Shown here in pieces: positions 9,958-42,619 of a DNA stretch of 48,667 nucleotides. The DNA is from Cyclobacterium plantarum (GTDB lineage Bacteria > Bacteroidota > Bacteroidia > Cytophagales > Cyclobacteriaceae): contig NZ_JAANYN010000019.1 of NCBI RefSeq assembly GCF_011290685.1, positions 1 to 48,667 of the forward strand. Direction: 5' to 3'. The notes below the pieces were generated by a model. It made no database searches. It saw nothing but the letters and a program-made list of their open reading frames with translations, and was not told the origin of the DNA. Within the stretch, counting starts at the first letter, position 1. Each line of letters starts with the position of its first letter. The position numbers and the translations under genes are program-made.

Positions 9958-10085
9958 GATTTCATGTGTTTATAATTGTTTCTTAATGGTCACATGCTCG
10001 TCCGGATGACGTCAGTCGGACAGGAAATCTCGCATGGTTGTTAGTCATCCAAGTGTGTGACCGCTACATCATGCTAGATTTCATG
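9958..10085. repeat. Intergenic structured region containing repeat copy A and nested inverted repeats
   Basis: The space between two convergent genes holds unusual symmetry. An outer pair GGTCACA (9988-9994) and TGTGACC (10056-10062) encloses GGATGAC (10004-10010) and GTCATCC (10044-10050); GTCCG and CGGAC also pair locally. A 9-bp direct repeat, GATTTCATG, occurs at 9958-9966 and 10077-10085. The right part (10024-10082) is one copy of the 59-bp element described separately. No run of T follows, so this is not an ordinary intrinsic terminator. Confidence 0.6.
10024..10082 (-). repeat. 59-bp inverted-end repeat, copy A
   Basis: On the minus strand the element starts GAAATCTAGCAT and ends ATGCGAGATTTC, forming terminal inverted repeats that match at 11 of 12 positions. 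The body carries GTAGCGGTCACACA and ACAACC. It aligns without gaps to 42561-42619 at 47 of 59 positions. It lies 9 bp beyond the stop of the TPR kinase. No reading frame is visible in it, so it is a non-coding repeat, probably REP- or MITE-like. Confidence 0.75.
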
Positions 10086-10091
10086 AGATAT

Positions 10092-11966
10092 TCATGCTTT
10101 TTTTAACTGAAGGGTGAATTGCGTCCCCAAACCTGAAAGGCTTTGCACATCCATCCTGCCACCATTAAGGGTCAGAAATTGCTTGACCAAAAGCAAACCT
10201 AAACCAGTGCCTTTTTCGTTTGCTGTTCCCACCATGGAGGGTATACGGCCTTCATCCTCTCCATTGATCAGGTTTTGATGGACCTCATCTATGCCGACTC
10301 CGGAGTCTTTAATGTGACAATAGACAAAACGTTCATCTTCCTCATAAAAAATACTTATGCGGCCATATTCCGGAGTGAATTTGATCGCATTACCGATCAG
10401 GTTTTGGATAATGATTTTAAGGTGGTTTTTATCCACCCAAGCAAGACCAGGCAGGCCTGAGGCTCCCTGGTGCCGGATCTCCAGGAATTTGGTCCTTACC
10501 TGAAAATTTAAATGCTCCAATACCCTATCCACCATCTCTGTCACGTCCACCACTGTAGGTTTGGCATCCATGCCGTCCATTTGGGTATTCGCCCATTCCA
10601 GCAAATCATTTAACAAACCTTCCGTATTTTGAACCTGTCCGGATAAAAGCGCAAAAACATCCTGCTCTTCCTTTTCGCTAAAATATCCTTTTCCCTTCAT
10701 GTCAAGAAGTTGCTTGATGGCGTTAATAGGTGACCTCAAGTCATGGGATATAATGGACAATAACCTTGTCCTTACCTGATTTAACTCCTTTAAAGATTGA
10801 TTTTGTTGTGTTATCAAATCCTTTTGCTGTCTGATAGCATTATTTTTCTTCTCCAAAGAGCGGTTGAAATGTTCTTTTAACCGCAAATGCTTTGAGAAAA
10901 AATAAAGCATACCAGCCAGCAACACAACTAAGACCACCAAAAAACCCATCAGTTTGTAGTGCTGTTGTATCAAGGTGTTGTCCCTTTCCTTTTCTGCTCT
11001 CAGTCGCTGATTATCTGTCTGGGTCAGGTTTAGCTGAAGCCTGGCCATTTGCCGGTTCTTGGCGGCATTATATAGGCTATCGCTGTAGGCTTTATGCGCC
11101 TGCAAATGATAAAAGGCTTTATCAAAAATAGCCAGTTCACTGTAAATCCGGCTTAGCAATCCCGTGATTTGTTGCAAATCCCAATGTGCCCCATGGGCTT
11201 CTGCAATCTCCAAAGCCTGTTTACCCAGATCCAGGGCATGTTCTATATCCCCTTTGTCAAAGTGAATTGCCGCCAAACCCGTCAGGGCAAATGACTTCTC
11301 CCAGTTGGTTAGTAACAAATCGTCGTACAATACTTCCAAATACAACTCCTCTGCCCGGTCCAAATCTCCCCTTTCATGGTATACCCTGGCCATTCTGTTT
11401 TTTACCATGAGGTTTAGCACTGACTTCCTATCTGCCTCCAAAAATACCATCGCTCTTTCCAAATGGTCCAAAGATCGATTTAAATCACTCAACTCATCGT
11501 AGGCAATTCCTAAATTGAAAAGATTTTTGGCCACTCCCAAGCTATCTCCGAGCAAGGTATTGCCCTCCAAACATTCTGTCAAAAGCTGAATGGCTTCCTC
11601 ATATTCTTTATCCACCATTTGGATTAAAGCCCTTCCATTGGTTGCATAGAGAGACTCTTTTATGGCATTTGCCTGATCTCCAAAGTTCTTTGCCACTGCA
11701 AAATGTTCAAGGGCTTCATTATAGCCTCCTGAAATATAATGAACCCTTCCTGCCTGGTTATGAATCCGGGCCAAAAGCAAGGGATCATTGGTAGCTATTC
11801 CCAGACTTAATGCCTGGTTCACCAAGGCCAGTGACTCCTCCTTTTGATCGTATTGTAAAGCACTCGCTTTTTCAAGCAATGAGTCAATTCTATCCGAGGC
11901 CTGGGCCAATGATACTGAAAAGAAAATCGCTACAAGAAGAATAAAAATGGTGCATTTAAAGGGCAT
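10092..11966 (-). CDS. TPR-repeat sensor histidine kinase
   Basis: Membrane-anchored histidine kinase of 624 residues. A signal peptide (MPFKCTIFILLVAIFF, ending near QA) leads to a periplasmic region of about six tetratricopeptide repeats (residues 35-320). A membrane helix follows (about 339-358), then a coiled coil, HisKA with SIISHDLRSP (His408) and HATPase_c with NLIGNAIKF, DSGVGI and GTGLGL. There is no receiver. The layout matches the widespread Bacteroidota TPR kinases, in which the repeats probably sense a protein or peptide. An in-frame ATG at 12008 was rejected because a strong promoter places the transcript start near 12003. No response regulator is adjacent. Confidence 0.94.
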   Translation of the reverse strand: MPFKCTIFILLVAIFFSVSLAQASDRIDSLLEKASALQYDQKEESLALVNQALSLGIATNDPLLLARIHNQAGRVHYISGGYNEALEHFAVAKNFGDQANAIKESLYATNGRALIQMVDKEYEEAIQLLTECLEGNTLLGDSLGVAKNLFNLGIAYDELSDLNRSLDHLERAMVFLEADRKSVLNLMVKNRMARVYHERGDLDRAEELYLEVLYDDLLLTNWEKSFALTGLAAIHFDKGDIEHALDLGKQALEIAEAHGAHWDLQQITGLLSRIYSELAIFDKAFYHLQAHKAYSDSLYNAAKNRQMARLQLNLTQTDNQRLRAEKERDNTLIQQHYKLMGFLVVLVVLLAGMLYFFSKHLRLKEHFNRSLEKKNNAIRQQKDLITQQNQSLKELNQVRTRLLSIISHDLRSPINAIKQLLDMKGKGYFSEKEEQDVFALLSGQVQNTEGLLNDLLEWANTQMDGMDAKPTVVDVTEMVDRVLEHLNFQVRTKFLEIRHQGASGLPGLAWVDKNHLKIIIQNLIGNAIKFTPEYGRISIFYEEDERFVYCHIKDSGVGIDEVHQNLINGEDEGRIPSMVGTANEKGTGLGLLLVKQFLTLNGGRMDVQSLSGLGTQFTLQLKKA

Positions 11967-12009
11967 ATTATCAATATTGACAATTATACAATAAGTAAAA
12001 ATGTACAAA

Positions 12010-12040
12010 CAAAAATAGCTAAATTAAGATTTTAAACAAA
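12010..12040 (-). promoter_or_regulatory. Bacteroidota-type promoter of the TPR kinase
   Basis: Reading on the minus strand, TTTG (12040-12037) and TATTTTTG (12017-12010) are separated by 19 bp. This matches the -33/-7 consensus TTTG-N19-21-TAnnTTTG fully. Transcription should begin near 12003, leaving about 37 nt before the ATG at 11966 and excluding the longer start at 12008. Confidence 0.75.
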
Positions 12041-12100
12041 TATAATTTCTATAAAATTAATTTAATATTATAAAAGTATTTTGTAATCAAAAAAACGCTT

Positions 12101-12407
12101 TTAAAATAACTCTTTCAACACCCTATGAGCTGCATGAAAACCGCACATACCGTGAATTCCTTCCCCGGGAGGGGTTGCAGAGGAACACAGATAAACCCCT
12201 TTGGCCGAAGTGCTGTAAGGAGAAAGTCTAAGAGCCGGCATGGTGAAAACCTGGCAAAGTCAGTTCCCTGGTGCGCATCCCCCCTCCCACCTGGTCTTTG
12301 CCTTCAATCAATAAAACTTTTAATCCATGTTAGACCAATACGATCGCGGCTCCAAGCCCATTAGGTCCAGAACCAACTACAACTGCGTCATAAAATTTAT
12401 CAGGCAT
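12101..12407 (-). pseudogene. Internally deleted phytoene-desaturase-like NAD(P)/FAD oxidoreductase
   Basis: Remnant of a roughly 500-residue flavoprotein. The first 56 codons keep the Rossmann start DAVVVGSGPNGL and LLIEGKDQVGGGMRTREL. Codon 26 is TAA (12330-12332), where CAA (Gln before HGLKV) is expected. Near 12235-12245 the reading jumps, in another frame, straight to the family's C-terminus: [28 protein letters not shown] and a final ELF stop. About 420 codons are missing. The remnant ATG overlaps the aminotransferase stop by one base (TAATG), so the intact gene was once coupled to it. The remnant cannot make a working enzyme. Confidence 0.85.
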
Positions 12408-13741
12408 TAAGCTCCTTTTGATTCAATATTCTGGTTTCCATTGTCGGGGGCCAGCCTGGACAAGGCCAGCACAAATCTATCCAAATCGGCGGTACGGGTA
12501 TACACATGAGGCGAAACCCGGACACAGTTGATATTGCCGTAACTTATGGAGGTGGTATGTATTTTATATTTACTCAGTAGTTGTTGTCCCAGTTCCTGTG
12601 GTGTCAACCCCCTCACTGATACTCCTGCAATGGCGCAACTATAGGCCGCTTTGAGAGAAGTATGAATTTTCACACCGGGAATGGTAAGGGCCTTTTCTGC
12701 CCAGTAATTTTTTAAATACCGAACCCTTTCCTCTTTTCTTTTGGCACCAATCCCATTGTGAAAATTCAAGGCTTCTCCTATGCCTTGTTCCAAAGGAAAA
12801 CTTCGGGTCCCCAGCGTTTCAAATTTCCGGATATCAGCACTCCTGGGATCACCGTTACAAAGCAATGGCCAAACTTTGGAAATTTTGTCTTTTTTAATCC
12901 AAAGCATGCCTGTCCCTATTGGAGCCGAAAGGTATTTGTGCAAGCTGGTACCGAAATAATCCGCTTCCAGATCGGGAATAGTAAAGTCCAACAACCCAAA
13001 TGAATGGGCACCGTCTACAATCACCTCCAGACCTCTATCATGTGCCATTTGACAAATTTTCTTTACAGGCATGATCTGCCCCACCCAGTTGATTACATGA
13101 GTGACATGGATGATTTTGGTCCTGGGGCTAATGGCCTTCCGGTAGGCATCAACGATTGATTCATCGTCCTCTACAGGAAAATCAAAAGAAATCTGTTTGT
13201 ATACTATCCCTTCTCTTTGCTCCCTTTGGCTCCAGGCCTGCATCATGTTGGGATAATCTTGCTTGCATCCTATAACTTCATCACCCTTTTCGAGGTCCAA
13301 GCCATAAATAATGGTGTTCAAGGCCTCTGTTGCATTGCGGTTGATGGCCAATTCCTCCGGATCACAACCAGCTAGTAGTGCCAGTTTTTCTCTCAAAGGT
13401 TCCCTTCCCTGGTCAAGGATTCTCCACATATAATAGGATGGAGCTTGATTGGACATTTGGTTATACCGCTCCACCGCATCCAAAACCAGCTGGGGACTAG
13501 GAGAAACACCTCCATTGTTCAGGTTCAGAACCGGAGATGAGCTGGCTGGATAGCCTTGTTGGATGAAGGCCCAAAAATCCTCATTCTCTGCCATTCTTTC
13601 CGGAGACACATCCTTGTATAGTTGGCTTTTTGCCGCTAAATCTGCAGCAAACACCTGCTGATACAGGCTATTGACGGAAAAGGCTCCGGTAAGAACCGCT
13701 GCTTTTCTGAAGAATTCTCTTCTATTGGTTACAGGTTTCAT
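12407..13741 (-). CDS. Tat-exported class V aminotransferase (isopenicillin-N epimerase-like)
   Basis: PLP-dependent fold-type I protein of 444 residues. The N-terminus NRREFFRKAAVLTGAF is a twin-arginine signal, which points to export to the periplasm already folded with its cofactor. The class V body shows NRNATEALNTIIYGL, the cofactor aspartate in VIVDGAHSFG, and the Schiff-base lysine in FGTSLHKYLSAPIGTGMLW. Relatives include isopenicillin-N epimerase and cysteine desulfurase-like proteins, but the substrate cannot be assigned. Its stop overlaps the start of the decayed flavoprotein, so its original partner has been lost. A -7-like box and a palindrome lie upstream. Confidence 0.92.
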   Translation of the reverse strand: MKPVTNRREFFRKAAVLTGAFSVNSLYQQVFAADLAAKSQLYKDVSPERMAENEDFWAFIQQGYPASSSPVLNLNNGGVSPSPQLVLDAVERYNQMSNQAPSYYMWRILDQGREPLREKLALLAGCDPEELAINRNATEALNTIIYGLDLEKGDEVIGCKQDYPNMMQAWSQREQREGIVYKQISFDFPVEDDESIVDAYRKAISPRTKIIHVTHVINWVGQIMPVKKICQMAHDRGLEVIVDGAHSFGLLDFTIPDLEADYFGTSLHKYLSAPIGTGMLWIKKDKISKVWPLLCNGDPRSADIRKFETLGTRSFPLEQGIGEALNFHNGIGAKRKEERVRYLKNYWAEKALTIPGVKIHTSLKAAYSCAIAGVSVRGLTPQELGQQLLSKYKIHTTSISYGNINCVRVSPHVYTRTADLDRFVLALSRLAPDNGNQNIESKGA

Positions 13742-13815
13742 TTTCAGAGATTTTAGTTAGTGGTTGATGTTAATAAATGAAAATTAAAGGCAGTAAGCTG
13801 CCTGGTTTTATTAAG

Positions 13816-13852
13816 AAGTCGACATCGACTTTTGCGAAAATAATCAAATTTA
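13816..13852 (-). promoter_or_regulatory. Candidate promoter and palindrome upstream of the aminotransferase
   Basis: The minus strand reads TAAATTTG (13852-13845), a match to the -7 consensus, without a clear -33 box. Just downstream in the transcript direction is a perfect palindrome, AAGTCGA and TCGACTT around 2 bp (13816-13831). A small hairpin (GGCAG, 4-nt loop, CTGCC) lies further downstream near 13790. The palindrome is well placed to be an operator or leader hairpin. No regulator is encoded nearby. Confidence 0.4.
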
Positions 13853-13958
13853 TCGATTTTTTCTGATTGGCTGCTTTTACGCCTCCTGCTTCATCCTGAG
13901 AAAAAATTTGCTTCTGGTGTCAATTTATCGGAATTTTGGGGATTCAAACAATAAGAGG

Positions 13959-14909
13959 ATGAGAGACATCAAATTGGTGGAAGTCAGATCGGAATTAGCC
14001 GCTGGAACCAGGGGGGCCAGCATGGGAATTGATGCCCTAAAAGTAGCCAGCCTGGATAAGAAATCCGACTTTTTCACCAAATTCGATCCTGTCAATGTAA
14101 AAGATGCCAATGATTACCTTTGGCGGGGCAATGAACATCCCTATGCAAAACATATCGATGGAGTTTATGAGGTAATTCATAATGTCTACACCACCATCCG
14201 GGACTTGCGAGAAAAAAGAAAATTTCCGATTGTCCTTGCCGGAGATCATTCCACCGCTGCAGGCACGATAATGGGTATTAAAGCTGCCCATCCCGAAAGA
14301 AAACTTGGAGTAATATGGATAGACGCACATGCAGACTTGCATTCACCTTTCACAAGCCCTTCCGGAAACATGCACGGCATGCCATTGGCCATGTGCCTGG
14401 GAATTGATAATCTGGAACAAAAACTAAACGACCCCCTTCCGGGAACTGTAGCCTATTGGGATAAACTCAAAAACATAGGCGGAGAAAAACCAAAAATTTC
14501 ACCCGAAGACATCGTATTTATCGGCGTAAGGGATACTGAATATCCGGAAAACTACCTGATAGAAAAGTACGGAATCACCAACATTTCCGTGGCAGAATTG
14601 CGCACTTCCGGCATCCCTTCTGCAGCATCCAAAGTTTTGGATAGGCTGAAAGCCTGCGATCAAATTTACATTTCCTTTGATGTAGACAGCCTGGACACTT
14701 CTATTTCGAAAGGAACCGGCACCCCCGTGCCCGACGGATTGACTTTATCTGAAGCTGTGCAACTCAATGAAGCATTGATCAAGGATAAAAGGGTGTGTGC
14801 CTGGGAAATTGTAGAGGTTAATCCTACGCTGGATACAGAAAATGCCATGGCTGAAAATGCCTTTGAGATATTGGAATCTACCACCAGGTCCCTGGTACAA
14901 AACTTCTAA
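13959..14909 (+). CDS. rocF: Arginase family protein (arginase)
   Basis: Manganese ureohydrolase of 316 residues that would convert L-arginine to ornithine and urea. All metal ligands are visible: His97 in GDHS, Asp122, His124 and Asp126 in DAHAD, and Asp241 and Asp243 in SFDVDSLD. The substrate-loop segments SGNMHGMPL and SKGTGTPVPDGL are the arginase forms rather than agmatinase. The ATG at 13959 begins the conserved IKLVEVRSELAAGTRG start; a longer reading to 13908 is not supported. It converges with the NUDIX gene. No urease or ornithine gene is adjacent, so it acts as a stand-alone step of arginine breakdown. Confidence 0.92.
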   Translation: MRDIKLVEVRSELAAGTRGASMGIDALKVASLDKKSDFFTKFDPVNVKDANDYLWRGNEHPYAKHIDGVYEVIHNVYTTIRDLREKRKFPIVLAGDHSTAAGTIMGIKAAHPERKLGVIWIDAHADLHSPFTSPSGNMHGMPLAMCLGIDNLEQKLNDPLPGTVAYWDKLKNIGGEKPKISPEDIVFIGVRDTEYPENYLIEKYGITNISVAELRTSGIPSAASKVLDRLKACDQIYISFDVDSLDTSISKGTGTPVPDGLTLSEAVQLNEALIKDKRVCAWEIVEVNPTLDTENAMAENAFEILESTTRSLVQNF

Positions 14910-14920
14910 GTTGCCAAAAT

Positions 14921-15343
14921 TTATAATCCCGGATGCTTTTCCATAAACATTCTGGCGAATGCTGTAACATTAGGATACATGTTGGTTTCCTCGAGCACTT
15001 CAATGGCAGAAAAAAAACGGACTTCACAACATTCAGGTGAAGGGACAAAGCGCAGGTGTTCCAGTTCCGTAAGGTATATGACATTGGCAATATAAACCCC
15101 TTTATGGTTTTTTACCGTGAAAAAAAAACAAGGTTGATCGGCAATAGCACTTGTTTTGAGTTGCATTTCTTCCCATATCTCCCTTTTGATTCCCTCCTGA
15201 GCAGATTCTCCATGGTCTAGTCCTCCACCGGGCAGCTCCCATATGCCATTGTCCTCTTTGACCAAAAGAAAACGATGGTTCTCATCCAGAATGAGTGCTT
15301 TTACACTTATCCGGTAAAAACATTCCGGTATTTCCAATTCCAT
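14921..15343 (-). CDS. NUDIX hydrolase
   Basis: Small NUDIX-fold hydrolase of 140 residues. The box reads GGLDHGESAQEGIKREIWEE and keeps the core REIWEE for metal binding; the glycine that normally follows is replaced by glutamine (EEMQL). NUDIX enzymes cleave nucleoside diphosphates linked to another group; the substrate is unknown. The ATG at 15343 lies 4 nt after the nitrilase stop, so the two are probably one operon. The longer in-frame reading to 15460 falls inside the nitrilase gene. Confidence 0.9.
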   Translation of the reverse strand: MELEIPECFYRISVKALILDENHRFLLVKEDNGIWELPGGGLDHGESAQEGIKREIWEEMQLKTSAIADQPCFFFTVKNHKGVYIANVIYLTELEHLRFVPSPECCEVRFFSAIEVLEETNMYPNVTAFARMFMEKHPGL

Positions 15344-15347
15344 GAAT

Positions 15348-16307
15348 TCAGTTATTTTTCTGGTTTGAGAGCCAGGCAACTTTCTGGACAGGCACATGTT
15401 CACGACCCAGGATATCCCGGTAAAGTTCCGGTCTGCGTGCATTCTTGTACCTAAACCCACCCGCCTGCTTTAGCTTTTCCGGGTTTAGGGTAGCAAGGGC
15501 AAAATCATCATCCAATTTCCGGCATTCTGTGATGATATCTCCAAAAGGGTCAATCACCATCGAACACCCATTTTTCAACTGATCATCATCCATGCCAATT
15601 GGATTGGAAAAAACAGCATATATGGCATTATCATAGGCCCTGGCCGGGAGCCATTTCATGAGCCATTGGCGGCCCTTCATTCCATCAAATTCAATCCTCA
15701 GTGAAGTTGGGTCTTTGTGCCTGTTATCCCAAAGGAGGGGATCCACAAATCCCGCCCCAGGCCTGGAAGAAGGGGTACACATGGTTACATGCGGCATGAA
15801 AATCACATCTGCCCCCAATAAGCTGGTAGCTCTTACATTTTCTATAATGTTGTTGTCATAGCAAATCAGTATACCACAATTCCAGCCATGTATATCAAAA
15901 ACAGTATATGAAGATCCCGGGCTGAGGTGGGGATTGATAAAAGGGTGCAGCTTGTGGTGCCTGGCTTTCAGCCCTTCTCCATCCACACAGACATAGCATT
16001 TGTACATGCGCTCCTCTTTATCCTTTTCAAAAAGCCCTGCCAAAATGGTTATTTCATGCCGCCGGGCTATTTGGATAAGCCGTTCAACGCTGGGGCCATT
16101 TGGTACAAATTCAGCCAAACCCAACATCTGTTCACGATTTAATTTGCGGGCAAATGTGTATCCTGTGATAGAACATTCATGAAAAGCAATCACCTTTGCC
16201 CCCTGACTGGCAGCCTTTTGGCTTATACTTTCAATAATCTCCAGATTATACGCTTTATCCCCACTTCTGTGTTCAAATTGTGCAGTTGCTACTGTTAACT
16301 CTTCCAT
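15348..16307 (-). CDS. Nitrilase superfamily carbon-nitrogen hydrolase
   Basis: Amidase-type enzyme of 319 residues. The catalytic triad is readable: Glu44 in FHECSITGY, Lys119 in RHHKLHPF and Cys149 in ILICYDNN. The family splits C-N bonds in amides, carbamyl compounds or nitriles, and releases ammonia. The sequence is closer to the N-carbamoyl/aliphatic amidase-like branches than to true nitrilases, but the substrate is not assignable. The ATG at 16307 starts the family's EELTVATAQFEHR strand; the longer start at 16337 is unlikely. The neighbouring NUDIX gene follows after 4 nt. Confidence 0.92.
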   Translation of the reverse strand: MEELTVATAQFEHRSGDKAYNLEIIESISQKAASQGAKVIAFHECSITGYTFARKLNREQMLGLAEFVPNGPSVERLIQIARRHEITILAGLFEKDKEERMYKCYVCVDGEGLKARHHKLHPFINPHLSPGSSYTVFDIHGWNCGILICYDNNIIENVRATSLLGADVIFMPHVTMCTPSSRPGAGFVDPLLWDNRHKDPTSLRIEFDGMKGRQWLMKWLPARAYDNAIYAVFSNPIGMDDDQLKNGCSMVIDPFGDIITECRKLDDDFALATLNPEKLKQAGGFRYKNARRPELYRDILGREHVPVQKVAWLSNQKNN

Positions 16308-16355
16308 AATCAAAATCCAATGAAATTTATCGGGCAAAATATTGCCCCCGGGCTA

Positions 16356-16595
16356 TTATTGCAATTCTTCTTTTATAGCGGCCAACAAGGAAAATTCATC
16401 CGGACTGTCTGCCTGAACATGCCAGACCATTACCCCTCCCAATCCTCTTGCTTTTGTCAGGGCGGTTTTTCGTTTGATGAGCTCTTGGCTGTTATAATAC
16501 AATACCTTGAAATCCGGATCAGAATCCATTACTTCCATCGGTGCAATGGAACAGGAAAAAAATCCGATAATTGTAATTATCAGGCGAATCAACAT
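16356..16595 (-). pseudogene. Truncated GH18-like glycosidase remnant (ends kept, middle lost)
   Basis: An open frame of 79 codons that looks like the two ends of a family 18 glycosidase joined together. It starts with a hydrophobic signal (MLIRLIITIIGFFSC, weak lipobox). From about residue 30 it has the typical C-terminal strand and helix of GH18: FKVLYYNSQELIKRK, RGLGGVMVWHVQADSP and FSLLAAIKEEL. The catalytic DxxDxDxE region and most of the barrel are absent; intact relatives are about 330-400 residues. The frame is intact, so a short secreted peptide could be made, but it cannot be an active chitinase. Confidence 0.65.
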
Positions 16596-16676
16596 GACGT
16601 ACGTATTGTTTGATTTGATGTAACAATTTAATGTTCATCCTTCAAATAACAATAATTCAGTAGGAAATATTCTTTT

Positions 16677-17480
16677 TTACCAAACCAGGGTAGCGATCAC
16701 TGGCAAATGATCTGAGGCATAGGTTTCATGGATCACCCGGTGGTCCTTTACCGAAATCTCAGTGTCTGGTCTGTAAAATATAAAATCTATGGCCTTTTTG
16801 GGATCTATCACTGGAATGGTAGGTGGGCAATCTTCCTGACAAGTCCTGGTAAAATGACGGTCCAATTGATCAATGGCCTCAGATCCTATTACGGCATTGA
16901 AATCTCCGGCCATGATCAGCGGCAAGGTTTCCTTCTCAAAATAAGCGGTAATATCCCTTGCCTGGTTGGCCGCATTGGTATTGCTGCTAAAATCAAGGTG
17001 GGTAGAGGCAAATTTTAGTTTCTCTCCGTCAGGTAAGGTAACCAGCACTACAAGCATAGCCCTGGGTTCAGTATTCTCTGCTGAGGACAATTGTAATTTT
17101 TCTTTTTCCTCGATGGGAAACCGGGACAGAATGGCATTTCCATATTCACCTCCCTGGAAGGAAATAGATCTTTCAAAATAAAAATACATCCCGGTCATTT
17201 CGGCAAGCATTTTGGCCTGGTGCAGCCCTGAACCTGAGCGTTGGGTATACACATCCACCTCTTGCAAGGCCACCAAATCGGCCCCACTATTTTTGATTAC
17301 TTTGGCTATGGCCGGTAGATCTATAGAATCCGGAATAGATGGTGGGTTGGCATGGTGAATATTATAAGCCAAAACTTTCACTCCACTTTGGCCAAAAACG
17401 GGAGTAGAAAGCCCCAAGATTGAGAGGCCAAACAACAGGCAAAACAGAAAATGACAGGAGACAAAAAAGATAATTTTCAT
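16677..17480 (-). CDS. Secreted endonuclease/exonuclease/phosphatase family protein
   Basis: Exported EEP-fold metal-dependent phosphodiesterase or phosphatase of 267 residues. The signal peptide spans about residues 1-31, ending near VFGQ. The fold motifs are clear: AYNIHHAN, LVALQEVDVYTQRSG, GDFNAV and the C-terminal SDHLPVIATL. Members cut nucleic acids, sphingomyelin or inositol phosphates, and the target here is unknown. It is followed by the GH18 remnant on the same strand, and the leader upstream is long and AT-rich. Confidence 0.92.
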   Translation of the reverse strand: MKIIFFVSCHFLFCLLFGLSILGLSTPVFGQSGVKVLAYNIHHANPPSIPDSIDLPAIAKVIKNSGADLVALQEVDVYTQRSGSGLHQAKMLAEMTGMYFYFERSISFQGGEYGNAILSRFPIEEKEKLQLSSAENTEPRAMLVVLVTLPDGEKLKFASTHLDFSSNTNAANQARDITAYFEKETLPLIMAGDFNAVIGSEAIDQLDRHFTRTCQEDCPPTIPVIDPKKAIDFIFYRPDTEISVKDHRVIHETYASDHLPVIATLVW

Positions 17481-17882
17481 AGGATAAAGGGTTCAGATAT
17501 TTAATAAAATTTAAAGATAGGAAATCGGTTTTAAAATATAGTTTTTGTTTAGCTTTCAATTTACTTCCTAATATAAACCCCTTACAAGTACCTGTCCAAA
17601 AAATTTGTACTGCCTCATGATTTATATATTTTTTATTATAAAAGGACTCAGGCAATTTTAAGATTGCAAAATATTGAAGCAAAAGTCAGCCCATATTAAG
17701 AATAAGACTTTCAGGTTAAACCATTTATCTATTAAAAAATGAATTTTAAACATTATTTTTTGATTTTTACATATTTTTTTAGCTTTTTTAAAGTAATTCA
17801 AGGGAAAATTGCATGATTATTTTTAGGATATGGGTACTTTTTTAATTAAAATCAACCTCAATTTCACAGTTATAAATCTAAG
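17481..17882. other. AT-rich intergenic region between divergent genes
   Basis: This 400-bp stretch separates the EEP gene from the large hybrid kinase. It contains only weak symmetry: a short pair AGTAC/GTACT near 17587-17611 and a small hairpin GCAAT/ATTGC near 17652. No full -33/-7 promoter match, RNA gene or convincing frame is seen. Confidence 0.6.
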
Positions 17883-34836: not shown

Positions 34837-35004
34837 AACCATGGCAAAGCTACAGTTCCCTTTCCCTTTTAGTGCAACTGTAGAATAGCATGCAAAAGCC
34901 AATTTCACCGATCAAAATAATGCCAAAAACCAAAAAAATAACACCCTACCTCAACAGACTGACCAAATCCCTCGTCTCAGTGATATAAACCAAAAAAATT
35001 ACCC

Positions 35005-35418: not shown

Positions 35419-35587
35419 CTATCATTACAAAAGACTATTTTTACAGGACGAAACGAACTGTACCTCTTTGTTTTTTTGACACTTGCCATGATGAAAAGCT
35501 AAACCCCGGTTATCAATTGCATTGCGGTGGTCTGCGTGAGGTCTAAAAATCCGGGAGCAAACAAGAATTTATTTGCCTTTAAGAAAA

Positions 35588-35633
35588 AAGCGATATCGAT
35601 CTTTTCCTGTTTGAGGAAAGACTGATATCGCTT
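35588..35633 (-). terminator. Intrinsic terminator of the susCD transcript
   Basis: A perfect outer stem (AAGCGATATC with GATATCGCTT) plus an inner TCTTTTCC/GGAAAGA pairing with one bulge forms a long hairpin. On the minus strand it is followed by TTTTTTC. It lies 15 bp beyond the SusD stop and ends the pair. Confidence 0.85.
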
Positions 35634-35647
35634 AAATTTTAATTCAC

Positions 35648-37351
35648 TTAACAATCAGCTCCGATATACCCACAATTCTGTTGATACCCTCCACTGGTTC
35701 TATCAATTTGCTCCAGCGGTATTGGTCTGAAAATGTGGTAATCCTGTATGTTATTTCTGCCTTCCGGGTTGTGGGCCCTTACCCTTTCTACCAGTTTTCC
35801 TGTCCTGGCAAGGTCAAACCAACGGTGACCTTCTCCAACCAACTCCCTCCCCCTTTCATCCAAAAGGAAATCCAGTGTCGCTTCACCTGCCGCAATTTCG
35901 ATTGCTGATTCCATACCAGGCCAAGCCCCCCTTCTTCTTATACTATTGATATCTTCTGCAGCACCTTCCTGGTCTCCCAGCATGATACGGGCTTCTGCCC
36001 TGATCAAATAGGCGTCTGCCAAGCGCATCAAAGGATGATCCCTTTGTCCCGGAGGATGTTGCCTATTTGGCCGGGTTGGATCTATCCATTTGTTCAAGGT
36101 AGGGTACCATCTCTCATCATATTGACTATTGGTGATCACCAGGTAGGGAGTTCTTCCGATCCTATCCTCAGTCCAGAGTTCATCTTTGCCTGGACCCGGA
36201 ATAAAAACTGCTGTGTCACCGATACTGTACTTTTTGGTACCCACCAGGTTCGGGGCTACATAGCCCTGATTGGCATCCTCTGCTGTCCATTCAGGAATAC
36301 TACTTTCAGTATTGGATATCCAGGCATGTTTATAGGTTTTGTCATAACGAGCATCCATGTCCCGGTCCCAGAGGCCAAGAAGGAAGTCGGTAGGCCGAAA
36401 CCTTATCCAGGGCCTGCCATTTTCTGTATCCCTGGCCATTCCCGGTAAGATATCGTATTCCATCAGGAAATATAAATGGCCACTATGCCCACGCGTATCC
36501 AATCCTTCATCCACTTGATTCTTATTATTCTGAATGGAAAAAATGATTTCGCTATTCCGTTCATTGTTGATATCCCAGAGATTTGCGAAATCAGGCAACA
36601 AATTGAAATTATAATTGTTAATTACATTCCCCATTAACCGTTCTGCCTCCTGAGCATCTGCATTGCCCTGTCCATAGGATTGGTAGGCCCTGGTCATCAT
36701 CACCTTTGCCAGGAGAAATTCTGCTGCAGGTTTGCTGACACGTCCATAATCATTTTGAGCATCCGGTAAATTGGAAATGGCAAATTCCAGGTCCGGAATT
36801 ATGGCTTCACTGTAAATTTGCCCTGCAGGCGTTCTGTTGGCCTCAATTTCCACTCCCACTGTTTCCTCCAAAGAAAGGTGAACGTCCCCGAAAAAACGCA
36901 CCAGATTGAAATAGAAAAGGGCTCTCAAAAAACGTACTTCAGCAATCCTTGCAGTTTTCATGGCCTCAGAAACTCCATTTACGTTTTCTGACCGGTTGAT
37001 GACAGCATTCGCCTGGTTGATTCCCCTGTAGAAATCCCTCCAGGTGTCCCTCACAAAACCTTGTGCCGGACTGAAAGCTCCATCATAAAAATTGATCATT
37101 TTATGACTTCCTCCCCTACCATTCGTATGCAGATCCGTCCCAAAAACGGTCATGGTAAAACCCCGCTCCCAACCATAAAAGCTTTTGGTCTCTGCATATG
37201 TGGCAGCAACTGCAGCCTCAAATCCGCTGGCGGTGGTATAATAAGTACCCGCTGATACCCCTGAAATGAGATCTTCCTCCAGATAATCTTCACAGGAGGT
37301 GCTAAATATTCCTGACAACAGGACAATAATAATAATCCATTTATTGTTCAT
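35648..37351 (-). CDS. SusD/RagB family nutrient-binding outer-membrane lipoprotein
   Basis: Surface lipoprotein of 567 residues, standard length. The signal is MNNKWIIIIVLLSGIFSTSC with a Cys lipobox followed by EDYLEE. TPR-like helices line the middle (RFLRALFYFNLVRFFGDVHL is typical), and the C-terminus has RGRELVGEGHRWFDLARTGKL and the ending NCGYIGADC. It caps the SusC barrel and presents the nutrient, usually a glycan or peptide. The ATG at 37351 is preferred because the in-frame reading to 37378 would overlap susC. No hydrolase is linked to the pair. Confidence 0.95.
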   Translation of the reverse strand: MNNKWIIIIVLLSGIFSTSCEDYLEEDLISGVSAGTYYTTASGFEAAVAATYAETKSFYGWERGFTMTVFGTDLHTNGRGGSHKMINFYDGAFSPAQGFVRDTWRDFYRGINQANAVINRSENVNGVSEAMKTARIAEVRFLRALFYFNLVRFFGDVHLSLEETVGVEIEANRTPAGQIYSEAIIPDLEFAISNLPDAQNDYGRVSKPAAEFLLAKVMMTRAYQSYGQGNADAQEAERLMGNVINNYNFNLLPDFANLWDINNERNSEIIFSIQNNKNQVDEGLDTRGHSGHLYFLMEYDILPGMARDTENGRPWIRFRPTDFLLGLWDRDMDARYDKTYKHAWISNTESSIPEWTAEDANQGYVAPNLVGTKKYSIGDTAVFIPGPGKDELWTEDRIGRTPYLVITNSQYDERWYPTLNKWIDPTRPNRQHPPGQRDHPLMRLADAYLIRAEARIMLGDQEGAAEDINSIRRRGAWPGMESAIEIAAGEATLDFLLDERGRELVGEGHRWFDLARTGKLVERVRAHNPEGRNNIQDYHIFRPIPLEQIDRTSGGYQQNCGYIGADC

Positions 37352-37364
37352 GATTTTTTTCTTT

Positions 37365-40300
37365 TTAAAATGATACATTCACCCCCAATAAAAATTGCCG
37401 CGCCGATGGAATGGAACCAGCGGTAATATCACCTGCCAACTCCGGATCCCAGGTGTCGAATGTGGACCAGAATACAGGATTTTGAGCAGATGCATAAATC
37501 CTTAACCTGCTCATGGCCATCTTTTCTGCGAGACTTACTGGTAGATTATATCCAAGGGTGACATTTCTCAATTTCACAAAACTGCCATCGAAGTAACTCC
37601 TGGTGGATGAGTCTCTGGGAAATTCCTGATAAACATTGGGCCTGGGATTGGCATTGCTTGGGTTATCAATTGTCCAGTAATCCACATTTAGGTTATTGTA
37701 CCTTGCCTCGAGGTTATTGTTGGAATCATGAAATCTACTTCTGATCATGTGACCCATCCTGTAAAAAAAGAAGAAGCTTAAATCAAAGTTTTTGATTTGA
37801 AACCTGTTGGTTATTCCTCCTACATAATCAGGAACATCAGATCCCAACACCAACCTGTCGTCCGGCGTGATCCTATTATCTCCATCCTGATCTTTCAACC
37901 TGATCTCACCGGGAAATTTGTTTTCCATTTCCCTGGCCATATCCACTTCATCTGCTTGCCAAATACCAATTTTTTCATAATCGAAAAACACCCTTATCGG
38001 TTGTCCAATGAACCATTGGTTACCCGTATCGTCAATTGGATTGCCATTTTCGTCCCTGAAGACAAGATCAGTAATTTGTTCTCTATATCTGGAAACGTTG
38101 AATTGAACATCCCATCGGAAATTCATTTTGTCGATCGGGGTGGCATTCAGGGTCAACTCCATTCCGTTGGTTTTGGTGGCCCCAATATTTTGGAGGATAT
38201 TCTGATAACCAGAGGTATAGGGCAGGTTCCTTTCCAATAAAATATCTGTTGTATTGGTAATATAATATTCGAATGAACCAGAAAGCCGGTTGTTGAAAAA
38301 GCCAAAATCAACACCTAAATTCGTGGTTGCCGAAATTTCCCAACCCAAATCACTGTTTGGAATTTCATTTAAACCAAATCCCAAATAAGGCGTATCCCCT
38401 AAAGCATATACGGTTCTCCTTAACCTGCCTAGAGTTTGGTAGGGATCTACTGAGGTGTTTCCTACCTGCCCATAAGAGACCCTTAACTTAAGTTCTGTCA
38501 ATAAATTTTGATCTCTTAAAAAGCCCTCTTCGATTACACGCCATCCCATAGAACCCCCTGGAAAATAAGCCCATTTCTTTCCCGGCCCCAACCTGGACGA
38601 GCCATCTGATCTTAAAGTAGCCTGAAAAAGATATTTTCCCATGAAGTCATAGTTTACCCTTCCCATATAAGAGGAAAGAGTCCATTCCTCCAATCTACTG
38701 CTCAAATTCCCCTTGACTTCAGCTGTCCCAATATCATAAAACAACTGGGATTCATAAGGAAGGTTAGAAACTTCGGTGCCATGCTGTTCTGTCCTCAATC
38801 CCTGTATACTTTGTAAAAAGGTAGCCTGAAAGGAATGGTTTTCTCCAAAGTTCTTATTAAAGTTTAGTATATTTTCAACAGTATATCCAAAATCTGCCTG
38901 GTTTTCAATGGAAGCACTGGCGGGACCTCCCCTGTTTGTATTGGTTTGGCTGGCCCTGAAGTTCCCAATCCTATTGTACCTGATATCGGGGCCTGCATTG
39001 ACCCGGAAAGTTAAGCCCTCAACAATCTTAGCTTCCATATAGACCGGGGCAAATATCCTTGTAGACTTTCGTTCATCCACATATGCCCCGGGCACCAATT
39101 CATTTAAAGGGTTTGTCCGGATGCCGTCATTGGTAGGTAAAAACCGCAAACTACCATCCTCATTAAAAGGTACGCCGAGGGGATTATTGGATACTGCCTC
39201 TCCAATGGCTGATCCTGATCCCCAATTCTGAATGGCAAAAGAAGCTAAAAATGATGTGCCTACTTTAAAAACCTTACTGATTGAATGATCCAGATTGATC
39301 CGGGCAGTGGCCCGGGTGTAATCCATGTTGTCCACAATTCCTTCCTCGTTGAAATAACCCAATGATATGTTAAACTGGGTTTTCTCACTGCCACCATTGA
39401 CACTCACCTGATGATTGGTTTGATGTCCCTGCCCTATGATCAAATCCAACCAGTCGGTGGACCTTCCCATATTGACGGATTCCAGTTCAGTGGGATCCAG
39501 AAATACCTGTTCATCGGATGGCACTACACCATTCCAGGAGGGCTGACCGGTATCGGGATCCCACCTTCTGGCCTCTCTTTTCATGGCAGCATATTGTTGT
39601 CCGTTCATCATGTCCACCATATTGGTGACATTGGAGATCCCATAATATCCTTCATAAGAAACGGTGGTTTTTCCGGTAGAACCTCTTTTGGTCGTAATAA
39701 TAATAACCCCATTGGCGCCTCTGGAACCATAGATGGCAGTTGCTGCCGCATCCTTTAATACCTCCATGGAGGTAATATCCTGGGGATTAATATCAAAAAT
39801 GGCACTGGTGGCACTGGTTTGGGGAATGCCATCAATAACGTATAAAGGGTCATTAGAAGCGGAAATGGACCTTCTTCCACGGATAAGTATCTGGGGATTT
39901 TGTCCTGGCCTGCCTCCTGAGGATACAATATCCACACCTGCTACCTGACCTTGCATGGCTTCAACAGCACTCGCTACCGGGATTTCCTTTATGGATTTTT
40001 CATCTAAAGAGGATATAGCCCCGGTAATATTCCTTTTCTCCTGAGACCCGTAACCTACTACAACTACTTCATCCAGAGAAGAAAAATCCTCCTCTAGTAC
40101 AATGTCCAATTGGGTTTGGTTTCCTACGGTGACTTGTTTGGTTTTGTATCCGACAAAAGAAACAACCAAAACAGCCCCCTCCTGGGCCTCAATTTGGTAT
40201 TCACCATTGATATCAGTGGCAGTTCCTACGGAGGTACCCTGAACCAGAATCGTAGCACCGGGAATGCCCTCTCCTAGCTGGTCGGTAACCCTACCTGTAA

Positions 40301-40463
40301 CAATTATCAACACATCAACCACATCTGCATAGCTGTTATGATCCCTTGCCATACCATCCAGATTGATTGCCATTGAAGTCGGTATAACAATCATTAACAG
40401 AAGATTGCCATACAATAGTTTTTTACCTGCCTTTTTAAAAAGGTTTGGAATTGTTTTTTTCAT
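37365..40463 (-). CDS. SusC/RagA family TonB-linked outer-membrane transporter
   Basis: TonB-dependent importer of 1032 residues. After the signal (about 1-35) comes a carboxypeptidase-like regulatory domain (about 50-135, GRVTDQLGEGIPGATILVQG), then the TonB box region DEVVVVGYGSQEKRNITGA. The plug has GQVAGVDIVSSGGRPGQNPQILIRG, TSMEVLKDAAATAIYGSRG and NGVIIITTKRG. A 22-strand barrel fills the rest and ends in LLGVNVSF. It uses proton-motive energy through TonB. No STN domain or anti-sigma partner is adjacent, so control is probably not of the ECF type. Confidence 0.96.
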   Translation of the reverse strand: MKKTIPNLFKKAGKKLLYGNLLLMIVIPTSMAINLDGMARDHNSYADVVDVLIIVTGRVTDQLGEGIPGATILVQGTSVGTATDINGEYQIEAQEGAVLVVSFVGYKTKQVTVGNQTQLDIVLEEDFSSLDEVVVVGYGSQEKRNITGAISSLDEKSIKEIPVASAVEAMQGQVAGVDIVSSGGRPGQNPQILIRGRRSISASNDPLYVIDGIPQTSATSAIFDINPQDITSMEVLKDAAATAIYGSRGANGVIIITTKRGSTGKTTVSYEGYYGISNVTNMVDMMNGQQYAAMKREARRWDPDTGQPSWNGVVPSDEQVFLDPTELESVNMGRSTDWLDLIIGQGHQTNHQVSVNGGSEKTQFNISLGYFNEEGIVDNMDYTRATARINLDHSISKVFKVGTSFLASFAIQNWGSGSAIGEAVSNNPLGVPFNEDGSLRFLPTNDGIRTNPLNELVPGAYVDERKSTRIFAPVYMEAKIVEGLTFRVNAGPDIRYNRIGNFRASQTNTNRGGPASASIENQADFGYTVENILNFNKNFGENHSFQATFLQSIQGLRTEQHGTEVSNLPYESQLFYDIGTAEVKGNLSSRLEEWTLSSYMGRVNYDFMGKYLFQATLRSDGSSRLGPGKKWAYFPGGSMGWRVIEEGFLRDQNLLTELKLRVSYGQVGNTSVDPYQTLGRLRRTVYALGDTPYLGFGLNEIPNSDLGWEISATTNLGVDFGFFNNRLSGSFEYYITNTTDILLERNLPYTSGYQNILQNIGATKTNGMELTLNATPIDKMNFRWDVQFNVSRYREQITDLVFRDENGNPIDDTGNQWFIGQPIRVFFDYEKIGIWQADEVDMAREMENKFPGEIRLKDQDGDNRITPDDRLVLGSDVPDYVGGITNRFQIKNFDLSFFFFYRMGHMIRSRFHDSNNNLEARYNNLNVDYWTIDNPSNANPRPNVYQEFPRDSSTRSYFDGSFVKLRNVTLGYNLPVSLAEKMAMSRLRIYASAQNPVFWSTFDTWDPELAGDITAGSIPSARQFLLGVNVSF

Positions 40464-40774
40464 GAAATTTTGGGGTTTAAATTAATTGATATTCATTTTT
40501 TTTACATTCCGGAAATCCTTTGCCGATCTCCTTTAAGTACCTTTCTTCATAGGCAGGGGGTTTAACTAATTGTAAAATCCAAATTGTAGAGCGGATTTTA
40601 TACCACTTTACCTTGTTGTTTTCAAAATCAGAATCTTAGAAAAGGAGAAGATCACCTAAAACTATCGCCATGACATTTCCTTTTCCTATAATAAATAGTT
40701 GGTGTATTATGATATTCAATTTAGTGATTAAATTGGCATTTAATACTTTTTTTAAATATTTGTTCCTTCAATGG

Positions 40775-40791
40775 TATAATTTCAAATTATA
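40775..40791. promoter_or_regulatory. 17-bp palindrome upstream of susC
   Basis: Arms TATAATTT and AAATTATA around one C form a perfect palindrome about 310 bp before the susC ATG. It could be a regulator site, but AT-rich palindromes also occur by chance. Confidence 0.35.
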
Positions 40792-40910
40792 ATTGGTAAA
40801 ACAGGAACTTATACCCAATACCTGTATAAAAAATAGTTTTAGTATTGAAGGCTTTATTTTAAAAAGAAATACCTACAATTCGAATGAAGAGCCTGCCCTA
40901 AAATGAAGGG

Positions 40911-40937
40911 CCATCTTGAAAAGGCTTTTCAAGATGG
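40911..40937. repeat. 12-bp-stem hairpin between susC leader and barrel gene
   Basis: CCATCTTGAAAA and TTTTCAAGATGG form a perfect stem with a 3-nt loop. It lies about 55 bp past the stop at 40993 on the minus strand and lacks a U run, so it may be a weak terminator or an mRNA-stabilising hairpin. Confidence 0.5.
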
Positions 40938-40992
40938 AATCTGGCAACCATTAGCTCGACAAATGAAATTTTAATATGATGTTTTCCCTTAT

Positions 40993-41652
40993 TTAGAAAA
41001 AGTACCTTAGCCCAAGACTGGGTTGGTTGAGAAAACCGGCTAATTCAAAACCCCATCCCTGATATTTGGTGGTGTTCAATTCTCTATAAAATCTTCTTTT
41101 ATTATAAATTCTAAAAAACCGGGCATCTAAAAAAATAAGTTCAAAACTGAATTTTTCATGTGGAAAATAGGCCAGTCCCAGATTGCCAAAAAGGCCTACA
41201 TTCCTGGCAGTCTGCAGGGAATTGGATCTATCTCCTTGTTGCATTTGTTCTACATAAGTTTCATTCCAATGGTAATTTAATTCATAGGTGCCCATCAAAA
41301 ACAACTTGGGTTGGACCTCAATGTATCTTCTCAACCCCATAAAAACGTCCACCTCTTTTCTTTCAAATCCGTAGGCCAACCCTTGAAAGTCTGAGCCTTG
41401 ATAATCATTGTTACCTTTATTGCTTTGGTAGCTTCCTCCACCTATAATACTCAGCCTATCTTTAATAAAATAGGAATAAGAAGGCGTTAATCGGAGATTA
41501 TCAATTTGACTGTCCAATCCATTCTCTATAGTTCTGCTGTTCCAATCGATTTTTAATCCCAACGCATGAGTGCCCTGTGCTACCTGCCCAATGGCCTGGA
41601 AGCCTATAAAATAAAGCCCAATGCTCAAAAAAAGGTAAGTTAGCTTCTTCAT
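40993..41652 (-). CDS. Outer-membrane beta-barrel protein
   Basis: Exported protein of 219 residues. A signal peptide (about 1-22, ending near GQVAQG) is followed by alternating strands. The chain ends in SLGLRYFF, the aromatic last-strand signature of outer-membrane barrels. Its family is not assigned. It follows the other barrel gene in an ATGA overlap, so the two are co-translated and may form one surface unit. Confidence 0.8.
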   Translation of the reverse strand: MKKLTYLFLSIGLYFIGFQAIGQVAQGTHALGLKIDWNSRTIENGLDSQIDNLRLTPSYSYFIKDRLSIIGGGSYQSNKGNNDYQGSDFQGLAYGFERKEVDVFMGLRRYIEVQPKLFLMGTYELNYHWNETYVEQMQQGDRSNSLQTARNVGLFGNLGLAYFPHEKFSFELIFLDARFFRIYNKRRFYRELNTTKYQGWGFELAGFLNQPSLGLRYFF

Positions 41653-42254
41653 TGGTCTTTCTGTTTAAAAAAATAGATCAGCCCTACACTATTGGTGGTG
41701 ATTAAATCAAATGCAAATCGGGAATCACTGGATTCCTGGTCTGTTCCCAATTGATCCAATGACCTGGAATAAAGCAGGCCTCCTAAAGTGGCTTCCACCA
41801 TCCATTTGGAGCTGATTCTATAAGCTGCCCCCGGGGAGATGGATAAGGAAAAATTATTAAAGCCATCATCTCGTATGATAGCACCTGTGTATACTGCTCT
41901 TGGCTCAAAAAAGAGGGAGAAATTTTCAGCCACTGTGAAATACTTTCTATAAAAAACACCCATTCCTCCCGAGAGGCTGTTGGTTGTGGATTTACCCCCA
42001 TTCACGTTAGTTGAAGTACTTCTACTAAAGTTGATTTGGGGAATAAGCCCGATTGCAGCAGACTCACTTACAAAAAAGCCCAAATTTGGATTAAGATGGA
42101 TACTAAAATTGGAGTTGTTTGATTGGGCAATTACTTCGCTGGTATTGATGGATAAACCAAAACTTCCTCCCGCAAACTTATCCCCTTTATTAAACTGGGC
42201 AAAGGCATTGGAAATCCCGGATACAAAAATAAAGAGTAGAAATAGGTGCTTCAT
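41649..42254 (-). CDS. Outer-membrane beta-barrel protein
   Basis: Exported protein of 201 residues with a signal peptide (MKHLFLLFIFVSGISNAFAQ) and a mature barrel-like run such as GGSFGLSINTSE, GLIPQINFSRS and SNFSIHLNPNLGFFV. The ending VGLIYFFKQKDQ places the last strand just before a short tail. No function is known. Its stop overlaps the ATG of the next barrel gene. Confidence 0.8.
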   Translation of the reverse strand: MKHLFLLFIFVSGISNAFAQFNKGDKFAGGSFGLSINTSEVIAQSNNSNFSIHLNPNLGFFVSESAAIGLIPQINFSRSTSTNVNGGKSTTNSLSGGMGVFYRKYFTVAENFSLFFEPRAVYTGAIIRDDGFNNFSLSISPGAAYRISSKWMVEATLGGLLYSRSLDQLGTDQESSDSRFAFDLITTNSVGLIYFFKQKDQ

Positions 42255-42352
42255 AGAAAAAGGGTTTTTGTTAAATAGGATTAATTTAAAAATTAAATTT
42301 AATGGTTTGTTAGTTATATTACGAAAATTTTAATTTAATGGTTTGACTTACA

Positions 42353-42556
42353 ATGGGAAAATTTAAAAGCTTTTGGGGCTTCAAAAATTTCATAGATCCT
42401 TTTACAGGTCAAAAACTGAGCTTAAAAGATAGTCCAAAAGGTTTGATGGTGGAGAAAGAAAACCGGCATTTTCCACTCTTTTTTACAGGATTTAAGGTAA
42501 AACTACTATCTTACCTTGCCAATGAGGCGGATTCCATTATATATGCATTCCGGTAA
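42353..42556 (+). CDS. Possible small hypothetical protein
   Basis: A frame of 67 codons starting MGKFKSFWGFKNFIDPFTG and ending NEADSIIYAFR. Its composition is protein-like and it fills an otherwise empty gap, but there is no family, signal or membrane pattern. The repeat copy B begins 4 bp after its stop. It may be chance. Confidence 0.3.
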   Translation: MGKFKSFWGFKNFIDPFTGQKLSLKDSPKGLMVEKENRHFPLFFTGFKVKLLSYLANEADSIIYAFR

Positions 42557-42560
42557 TTTT

Positions 42561-42619
42561 GAAATCTTGCAACAAGTAGCCGTCACACAGAGGGAAGACT
42601 CACAACCCTGCGAGATTCC
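42561..42619 (+). repeat. 59-bp inverted-end repeat, copy B
   Basis: The element begins GAAATCTTGCA and ends TGCGAGATTCC; these ends match as inverted repeats at 9 of 11 positions. The body has GTAGCCGTCACACA and GACTCACAACCC. It is gapless against copy A at 10024-10082 (minus), with 47 of 59 identical. It lies 52 bp upstream of the esterase ATG. Confidence 0.75.

What the first reader, a model, noticed from the sequence alone, without database searches (positions are those of the whole stretch)
10024..42619. A 59-bp repeat with inverted ends occurs twice, 32 kb apart
Copies at 10024-10082 (minus) and 42561-42619 (plus) align without gaps at 47 of 59 positions. Both have GAAATCTnGCA at one end and its near-inverse at the other, and share GTAGCnGTCACACA and ACAACC inside. 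Both are non-coding and lie next to gene ends or starts. This fits a small dispersed element (REP- or MITE-like) or a structured RNA motif. I do not recognise it as a known family.
Basis: seen in the sequence. Interest (0 to 1): 0.8.

Follow-up and report, generated by a model that had tools for sequence, protein, structure and literature searches.

The report
Mobile repeat targeting gene start codons
In Cyclobacterium and related bacteria a tiny mobile DNA repeat jumps precisely into the start codons of genes and carries its own ATG, so the gene keeps a start codon; what moves it is unknown.

Summary
The two 59-bp copies are real: 47 of 59 positions match, and 200 shuffled queries reach at most 35. 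They belong to a dispersed family: 22 BLAST matches in the window's genome, copies in 11 of 12 genomes of the genus and in 32 of 148 sampled genomes of the family. The 59 bp are only its first hairpin. A unit runs from a host target, usually ATGAAA, through hairpin A, an optional GC-rich hairpin and hairpin B to a second ATGAAA.

In 60 of 84 arrays with a readable 3' end, that last ATG opens a long ORF. Empty orthologous sites at eight gene starts place the insertion exactly at the start codon. At one gene the left junction keeps a host TTGAAA while the right end reads ATGAAA, so the right ATGAAA is best read as element-borne, not a target duplication. Near-identical copies at seven places in one genome indicate recent movement.

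I see no terminal inverted repeats. No mobilising enzyme was found among those tested. Best reading: a non-autonomous, hairpin-ended element that captures start codons, probably moved as single-stranded DNA (inferred).

The parts
10079..10084 (-). copy 1: left target ATGAAA (host side)
   Evidence: sequence; the aligned empty site in relative G004 reads ATGGAA
   Evidence: model hit 73 bits (this copy is in the model's training set)
10000..10021 (-). copy 1: optional GC-rich hairpin GTCCG..CGGAC between hairpins A and B
   Evidence: sequence; RNA and DNA folds
9963..9996 (-). copy 1: hairpin B, CATGTG..CACATG
9960..9965 (-). copy 1: right-end ATGAAA; opens only 5 codons here (intergenic insertion)
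42559..42564 (+). copy 2: left target, here TTGAAA
   Evidence: sequence
   Evidence: model hit 60.7 bits (in the training set)
42640..42674 (+). copy 2: remnant of hairpin B; the 5' arm no longer pairs well
   Evidence: not formed in the folds
42672..42677 (+). copy 2: right-end ATGAAA, which is the start of ORF 42672-43544
42672..43544 (+). 290-aa ORF that starts at the element's ATG; alpha/beta hydrolase (PF07859)
8561..9907 (+). neighbour of copy 1, ends 5' of it on the + strand; acetyl-CoA hydrolase/transferase
10092..12008 (-). other neighbour of copy 1; TPR histidine kinase, convergent with 8561-9907

Best explanation
It is a non-autonomous mobile DNA element. Shown: it inserts next to a short target on one strand, usually ATGAAA (sometimes TTGAAA, CTGAAA or AAGAAA). 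The left junction keeps the host target and the right end reads ATGAAA. Coding-strand ATGAAA is a common gene start, and at such a site the element's last ATG becomes the gene's start codon in the right frame, so the gene survives. A finished element ends in a fresh ATGAAA, so further copies can insert there and build tandem arrays. Inferred: hairpins A and B are recognised as single-stranded DNA by a transposase acting in trans, in the manner of IS200/IS605 or REP transposases. The internal segment GATTCCATnTG may serve as a guide, because it is complementary to the target and to the element's own right end. The enzyme is not identified.
For: Copies. Start codons: 60 of 84 arrays; 13 of 22 places examined in the own genome. 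Base rate: 148 of 343 ATGAAA sites that are not inside CDS are start-like or open an ORF, binomial p 2e-7. Empty sites: 16 filled/empty comparisons, 14 at eight start codons and 2 at intergenic copy 1; left-flank identity 0.61-1.00 against a mismatched-locus control of mean 0.48, maximum 0.59 (n=226). TTG start kept at the left junction, ATG at the right. Same gene start hit by different subfamilies in different species. Hairpin B pair 6-35 covaries: GC 15, CG 8, AU 3, 0 of 500 shuffles. A divergent copy in another family keeps the plan with changed but matching arms, CATCCG/CGGATG. Recent movement: 7 copies in G006 plus 1 in G004 differ at 0-1 of 91 positions. Guide match 10 of 11 in 12 of 14 minimal units, 9 of 11 in 2.
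Against: No mobilising enzyme found: no element beside any of 33 Y1 loci, and no Y1 cluster shared by G004 and G011, both rich in copies (one of G011's three Y1 genes was not fetched). The element-free genome G009 also has Y1 genes. Single-strand DNA folds are unremarkable for 3 of 4 copies (z -0.38 to -1.69), and in one minimal unit the best DNA fold forms neither hairpin. Hairpin A is nearly invariant, so it hardly tests pairing. The empty sites at three of eight starts read ATGAGA, TTGAAA or ATGAAG, and two relatives at other loci read ATGCAA and ATGGAA, so an exact hexamer is not always seen. The base-rate test uses crude ORF calls on loci chosen for holding elements. The guide match includes two letters (TC) added from the tandem junction and five positions that are hairpin B itself.
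Confidence: 0.62

Rival explanations
1. It is a conserved cis-regulatory RNA of the 5' UTR, such as a leader or riboswitch, kept at gene starts by selection and not mobile.
For: Most arrays end at a start codon. RNA folds are more stable than shuffles for 5 of 6 copies (z -2.2 to -3.9; the sixth -1.3). One pair covaries.
Against: Presence and absence at the same gene between close species, unrelated genes downstream, intergenic copies such as window copy 1, tandem arrays, near-identical copies at unlinked places, no Rfam match.
Confidence: 0.08
2. It is a classical MITE: terminal inverted repeats moved by a DDE transposase, with ATGAAA as a 6-bp target site duplication.
For: ATGAAA flanks both sides in most copies.
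Against: The ends of the unit show no inverted repeat (by eye). The same hexamer recurs at different sites, whereas a duplication would vary with the target. In the CN-hydrolase gene left is TTGAAA and right is ATGAAA while two relatives have TTGAAA.
Confidence: 0.1
3. It is moved by a site-specific recombinase guided by RNA or by a shared core (IS110-like), or by a reverse transcriptase.
For: Sequence-specific target shared by both ends; structured element; reverse transcriptase matches in 11 of 12 genomes of the genus.
Against: IS110 (PF01548) is over its cut-off in 6 of 12 genomes and absent from carriers G000, G005, G006, G007 and G008. Reverse transcriptase (PF00078) is absent from G001, the genome with most matches. 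Other recombinase families were not searched.
Confidence: 0.15

Closest known systems
IS200/IS605-derived non-autonomous elements (PATE-like)
   Same: No terminal inverted repeats, hairpins near both ends, insertion next to a short target that stays at the left flank, a similar sequence closing the right end. The IS200/IS605 rules are from passages of PMC6006769; PATE papers were seen only as a search listing.
   Different: No TnpA/TnpB element with these ends was found; TnpB (PF07282) has 0 matches in 12 genomes. The terminal hairpins overlap target and end, and the target is a start-codon hexamer.
REP/BIME elements with RAYT (TnpA-REP) transposases
   Same: Short, dispersed, mostly non-coding, hairpin-forming, tandem clusters; Y1 genes present in all 12 genomes of the genus.
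   Different: No Y1 gene flanked by the element in 33 loci; two unlike hairpins in direct repeats instead of alternating REPs; precise target; the Y1 genes sit among palindromes of other sequence.
Rickettsia palindromic elements (RPE)
   Same: About 100-150 bp, tolerated at genes because the reading frame survives (passage of PMC10969869).
   Different: RPEs insert inside ORFs and are translated as part of the protein; this element sits before the ORF and supplies the start codon.
TIR-type bacterial MITEs (Correia, ERIC, RUP and others; names recalled or in the abbreviation list of PMC10969869)
   Same: Short, non-autonomous, dispersed.
   Different: No terminal inverted repeats and no ordinary target duplication here.

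Membership tests
REP/RAYT system | cognate Y1 transposase gene flanked by copies of the repeat | tested here: not met
   6 own-genome Y1 loci and 33 Y1 loci of 52 matches in the genus: only isolated weak motif hits, no element
REP/RAYT system | GTAG- or CGTC-type tetranucleotide at the foot of a 20-40 bp palindrome | tested here: inconclusive
   GTAG and CGTC strings occur inside hairpin A in many copies but not at its foot; not tested systematically
IS200/IS605 family (non-autonomous member) | subterminal hairpins at both ends, no terminal inverted repeats | tested here: met
   hairpin B supported by covariation, hairpin A nearly invariant; DNA folds weak for 3 of 4 copies
IS200/IS605 family (non-autonomous member) | target retained at the left flank, element-borne sequence at the right end, no duplication | tested here: inconclusive
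   TTGAAA left / ATGAAA right at the CN-hydrolase gene with two TTG empty sites; the other sites mostly cannot tell, since both hexamers are alike
IS200/IS605 family (non-autonomous member) | autonomous IS with the same ends and a TnpA gene | tested here: not met
   not seen in 33 Y1 loci of the genus; TnpB 0 of 12 genomes; the scan for hairpin B without hairpin A missed most known units and does not count
TIR-type MITE | terminal inverted repeats | tested here: not met
   unit ends read by eye: starts TCGAGC, ends ..AACAC(ATGAAA)
TIR-type MITE | target site duplication that varies with the site | tested here: not met
   flanking hexamer is the same at most sites: left ATGAAA in 90 of 112 rows
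known structured RNA (Rfam) | match to a curated family | tested here: not met
   0 matches: whole window at gathering, copy 1 at E<=1, L020 and L031 at gathering
IS110 | DEDD transposase present in carrier genomes | tested here: not met
   over cut-off in 6 of 12 genomes, absent from G000 and four other carriers
integron attC site | integrase and cassette array | not tested
   considered because of the 59-bp length; no integrase search made

The most novel reading that the evidence does not exclude
A family of hairpin-ended mobile elements whose evolved target is the translation start itself: an internal guide complementary to ATGAAAT directs single-strand insertion at start codons, and the element's own terminal ATGAAA becomes the new start codon, sometimes upgrading a TTG start to ATG. 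Start codons serve as a safe haven in a compact genome, and the element rewrites 5' UTRs gene by gene.
Probability: 0.35. Interest if true: 0.9.

Novelty: new variant of a known kind. Interest (0 to 1): 0.76.

Why it matters
Small bacterial repeats are known that tolerate insertion within genes or between them. I know of none (recall, plus the searches) that inserts at start codons and hands the gene a new one. If the reading holds, it gives a natural, repeated experiment on how 5' UTR replacement affects expression in Bacteroidota, which use little Shine-Dalgarno pairing (recalled). It also points to an unidentified enzyme with six-base specificity for ATGAAA. The genus holds Y1 genes with the motif of the orphan subclass 1.2 described in PMC6006769, for which no substrate is known there, so an open question becomes testable.

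Tried and rejected
REP with RAYT in cis: rejected. Y1 enzyme by co-occurrence: no shared cluster, and G009 without elements also has Y1 genes; 31 of the 33 loci gave a protein for clustering. IS110, TnpB, reverse transcriptase. Recurrent gene near the element: ORFs of 80 loci compared all against all; the largest group spans 13 loci, and I recognised no transposase by eye, with no family search of these groups. Autonomous copy with a gene between the hairpins: the scan matched only 29 tails, so it is inconclusive. Presence in viruses: exact pattern, 0 in viral contigs. Upstream ORF as a device for translational coupling: from the left ATG, 42 of 149 units stop within 12 nt before the right ATG, 29 stop within 8 codons, 30 stop elsewhere inside, 48 read past (2 of them in frame); no clear rule. 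Clean empty site for window copy 2: none; relatives show no element there by eye, but the flank next to the junction does not align.

Rows dropped: 2 of 159 model hits, cut off by a locus end, were left out; 5 of 44 rows with an insert in the left arm were left out of A3 and A4; L132-L165 were not given, 112 of 181 rows were kept by a rough filter that still holds some units behind another unit.
Full report
Observation. The two copies are at the stated places and match at 47 of 59 positions; the best other 59-mer in the window matches at 32, and 200 shuffled queries reach at most 35. A search with copy 1 gives 22 matches in the window's genome of 6.17 Mb and matches in 8 of 19 genomes searched, all 8 in the genus (8 of 12; own included) and 0 of 7 outside it.

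Distribution. A covariance model of hairpin A (R1, from 39 rows) finds 78 matches in the own genome and 150 in G001, where the number scored was capped at 150; 11 of 12 genomes of the genus have matches at E<=0.01, and G009 has none. Many of these genomes supplied training rows. In the family, 32 of 148 sampled genomes and 23 of 84 genera match at E<=1e-4; in a sample of the order, 7 of 194 genomes, one of them (G195) from another family. The exact pattern is absent from viral contigs.

Anatomy. The unit is longer than 59 bp. It reads: host target (usually ATGAAA); TCGAGCATGACG..CATGCGAGATTCC (hairpin A); an optional GC-rich hairpin of varying sequence; CATGTG..TTATAAACACATG (hairpin B); AAA. 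From left ATG to right ATG it measures 83-141 bp in 149 units, 88-92 bp in 104 of them. Units often stand in direct tandem, sharing the ATGAAATC at the junction. A second subfamily has the same ends but another hairpin A.

Structure. In hairpin B the middle pair covaries: GC 15, CG 8, AU 3, GU 1, unpaired 6 of 33 distinct rows; 0 of 500 shuffles reach the observed number of double changes, though only this one pair changes on both sides. Hairpin A is 98% paired in its main stem but almost invariant, so it is weakly tested. RNA folds have z from -1.3 to -3.9 in six copies; DNA folds from -0.4 to -3.2 in four, and in one minimal unit the best DNA fold forms neither hairpin. Stronger support comes from G195: its four copies read ATGAAA CGAGCATG..GCGAGTTCCATCCG..CGG ATGAAA. 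The arms of B are changed on both sides, and both the left end (TC to C) and the facing arm of A (GATTCC to GTTCC) are one base shorter (the alignment has part of these).

Start codons. In one search the model gave 159 hits in the window and 80 named loci; 157 were grouped into 92 arrays, 84 had a readable right end, and in 60 of these the terminal ATG opens an ORF of at least 60 codons, or at least 20 to the locus end. In the own genome 12 of 22 places examined do so, and a thirteenth does after a further subfamily-2 unit. For comparison, 944 plain ATGAAA sites in the same kind of loci lie inside CDS; of the 343 others 148 (43%) are start-like or open an ORF, and of intergenic ones only 19 of 214 open an ORF. 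The excess, 60 of 84 against 43%, has a binomial p of 2e-7. That test is rough: ORFs were called mechanically, the loci were chosen for holding elements, and copies are related.

Empty sites. I fetched orthologous upstream regions from the genus and compared filled with empty alleles. Eight start-codon loci align: an ArsC-family gene and a ChaN-like gene (G000 filled, G011 empty), the MKSLISW gene (G001; G003 and G006 empty), a DUF6807 gene, RsgA, KdtA, a CN-hydrolase and the MKLPVI gene (G001 filled; G003 and/or G006 empty). Example..taggaaaaaaag ATGAAA ACC.. empty against ..taggaaaaaaag ATGAAA TCGAGC..aaacac ATGAAA ACC.. filled, with 59 of 60 left and 57 of 60 right positions equal. Over 16 comparisons left identity is 0.61-1.00, against a mismatched-locus control of mean 0.48 and maximum 0.59 (n=226). 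In five of the eight loci an empty allele has exactly ATGAAA; in KdtA it is ATGAGA, in the MKLPVI gene ATGAAG, in the CN-hydrolase TTGAAA. Copy 1 of the window is an intergenic insertion: the aligned site in G004 is ATGGAA, in what looks like the arm of a terminator hairpin. Copy 2 has no clean empty site.

Duplication or element-borne end. At the CN-hydrolase gene both empty alleles start TTGAAA; the filled allele keeps TTGAAA at the left junction and has ATGAAA at the right. The simplest history is a TTG ancestor and an element that brings its own ATGAAA. Left targets that differ from ATGAAA are TTGAAA 8, CTGAAA 3, AAGAAA 3, ACGAAA 2 and single others, against 90 ATGAAA, in 112 rows; 3 rows are out of register. 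This is the IS200/IS605 topology as described in passages of PMC6006769, but it rests mainly on one locus.

Activity. Seven copies in G006, chosen for equal scores, and one in G004 differ at 0-1 of 91 positions while their flanks differ. The same gene start has been hit by subfamily 1 in G001 and by subfamily 2 in G000 and G011.

Mechanism. Shown: sequence-specific insertion at (A)TGAAA, oriented with the target, leaving the gene with an in-frame ATG. Inferred: movement as single-stranded DNA by a hairpin-reading transposase in trans. In 14 minimal units the internal GATTCCATnTG is complementary to the right end plus TC at 10 of 11 positions in 12 and 9 of 11 in 2; part of this is hairpin B itself. 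Against: none of 33 Y1 loci carries an element, G004 and G011 share no Y1 cluster among those fetched, and G009 has Y1 genes but no element. TnpB is absent from all 12 genomes, IS110 from several carriers, reverse transcriptase from G001. The enzyme is thus unknown; it may be lost in some species, or of a family that I did not search.

Known or new. No Rfam match. Eight answered literature searches gave no paper on such an element, judged from listings and abstract starts. Passages were read in PMC3733652, PMC6006769 and PMC10969869 ('start codon' does not occur in its text); in PMC2759123 the terms asked for were absent. The library lacks most subscription journals. I file it as a new variant of a known kind, non-autonomous short mobile elements, with an unusual target.

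Noticed in passing
L009-L014 and L246-L272 (Y1_Tnp loci of the genus): Every one of the 12 genomes has Y1 transposase genes (2-7 each). Of the 31 proteins read, most carry a Y motif like YIxNQxxHH, as in the orphan subclass 1.2 of PMC6006769. They sit among palindromic repeats of other sequence, which look like further REP-type families.
   Followed up: partly
window 10000-10021; many copies in L002-L051: GC-rich hairpins of several sequences (CCGACTGGCGTCAGCCGG, TCCCGATTTAAGATCGGGA, CCTGTCTGCCGACAGGCAGG) stand at the same point between hairpins A and B; another stands in the left arm of A in 5 of 44 rows. They look like nested small elements.
   Followed up: no
L043, L051, L167, L177, L305-L307: A second subfamily with the same ends and a different hairpin A (GATTAAAATCATC..GATGATTATTTTAATC type), also at start codons.
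   Followed up: partly
L321, L322, L323 (G195, another family of the order): Four divergent copies. Two loci end at ATGAAA before what look like a kinase and a methyltransferase ORF (by eye). In L321 the stop of the upstream gene overlaps the target (ATGA).
   Followed up: partly
units: The left ATG of the element opens a short ORF; in 42 of 149 units it stops within 12 nt before the right ATG (often TTATAA), which could allow translational coupling. No consistent rule.
   Followed up: partly
L288 (G005): A more distant relative of the element (ATGAAATCCCGTATGCACC..) at the same DUF6807 start codon that is hit in G001 and empty in G003 and G006.
   Followed up: no
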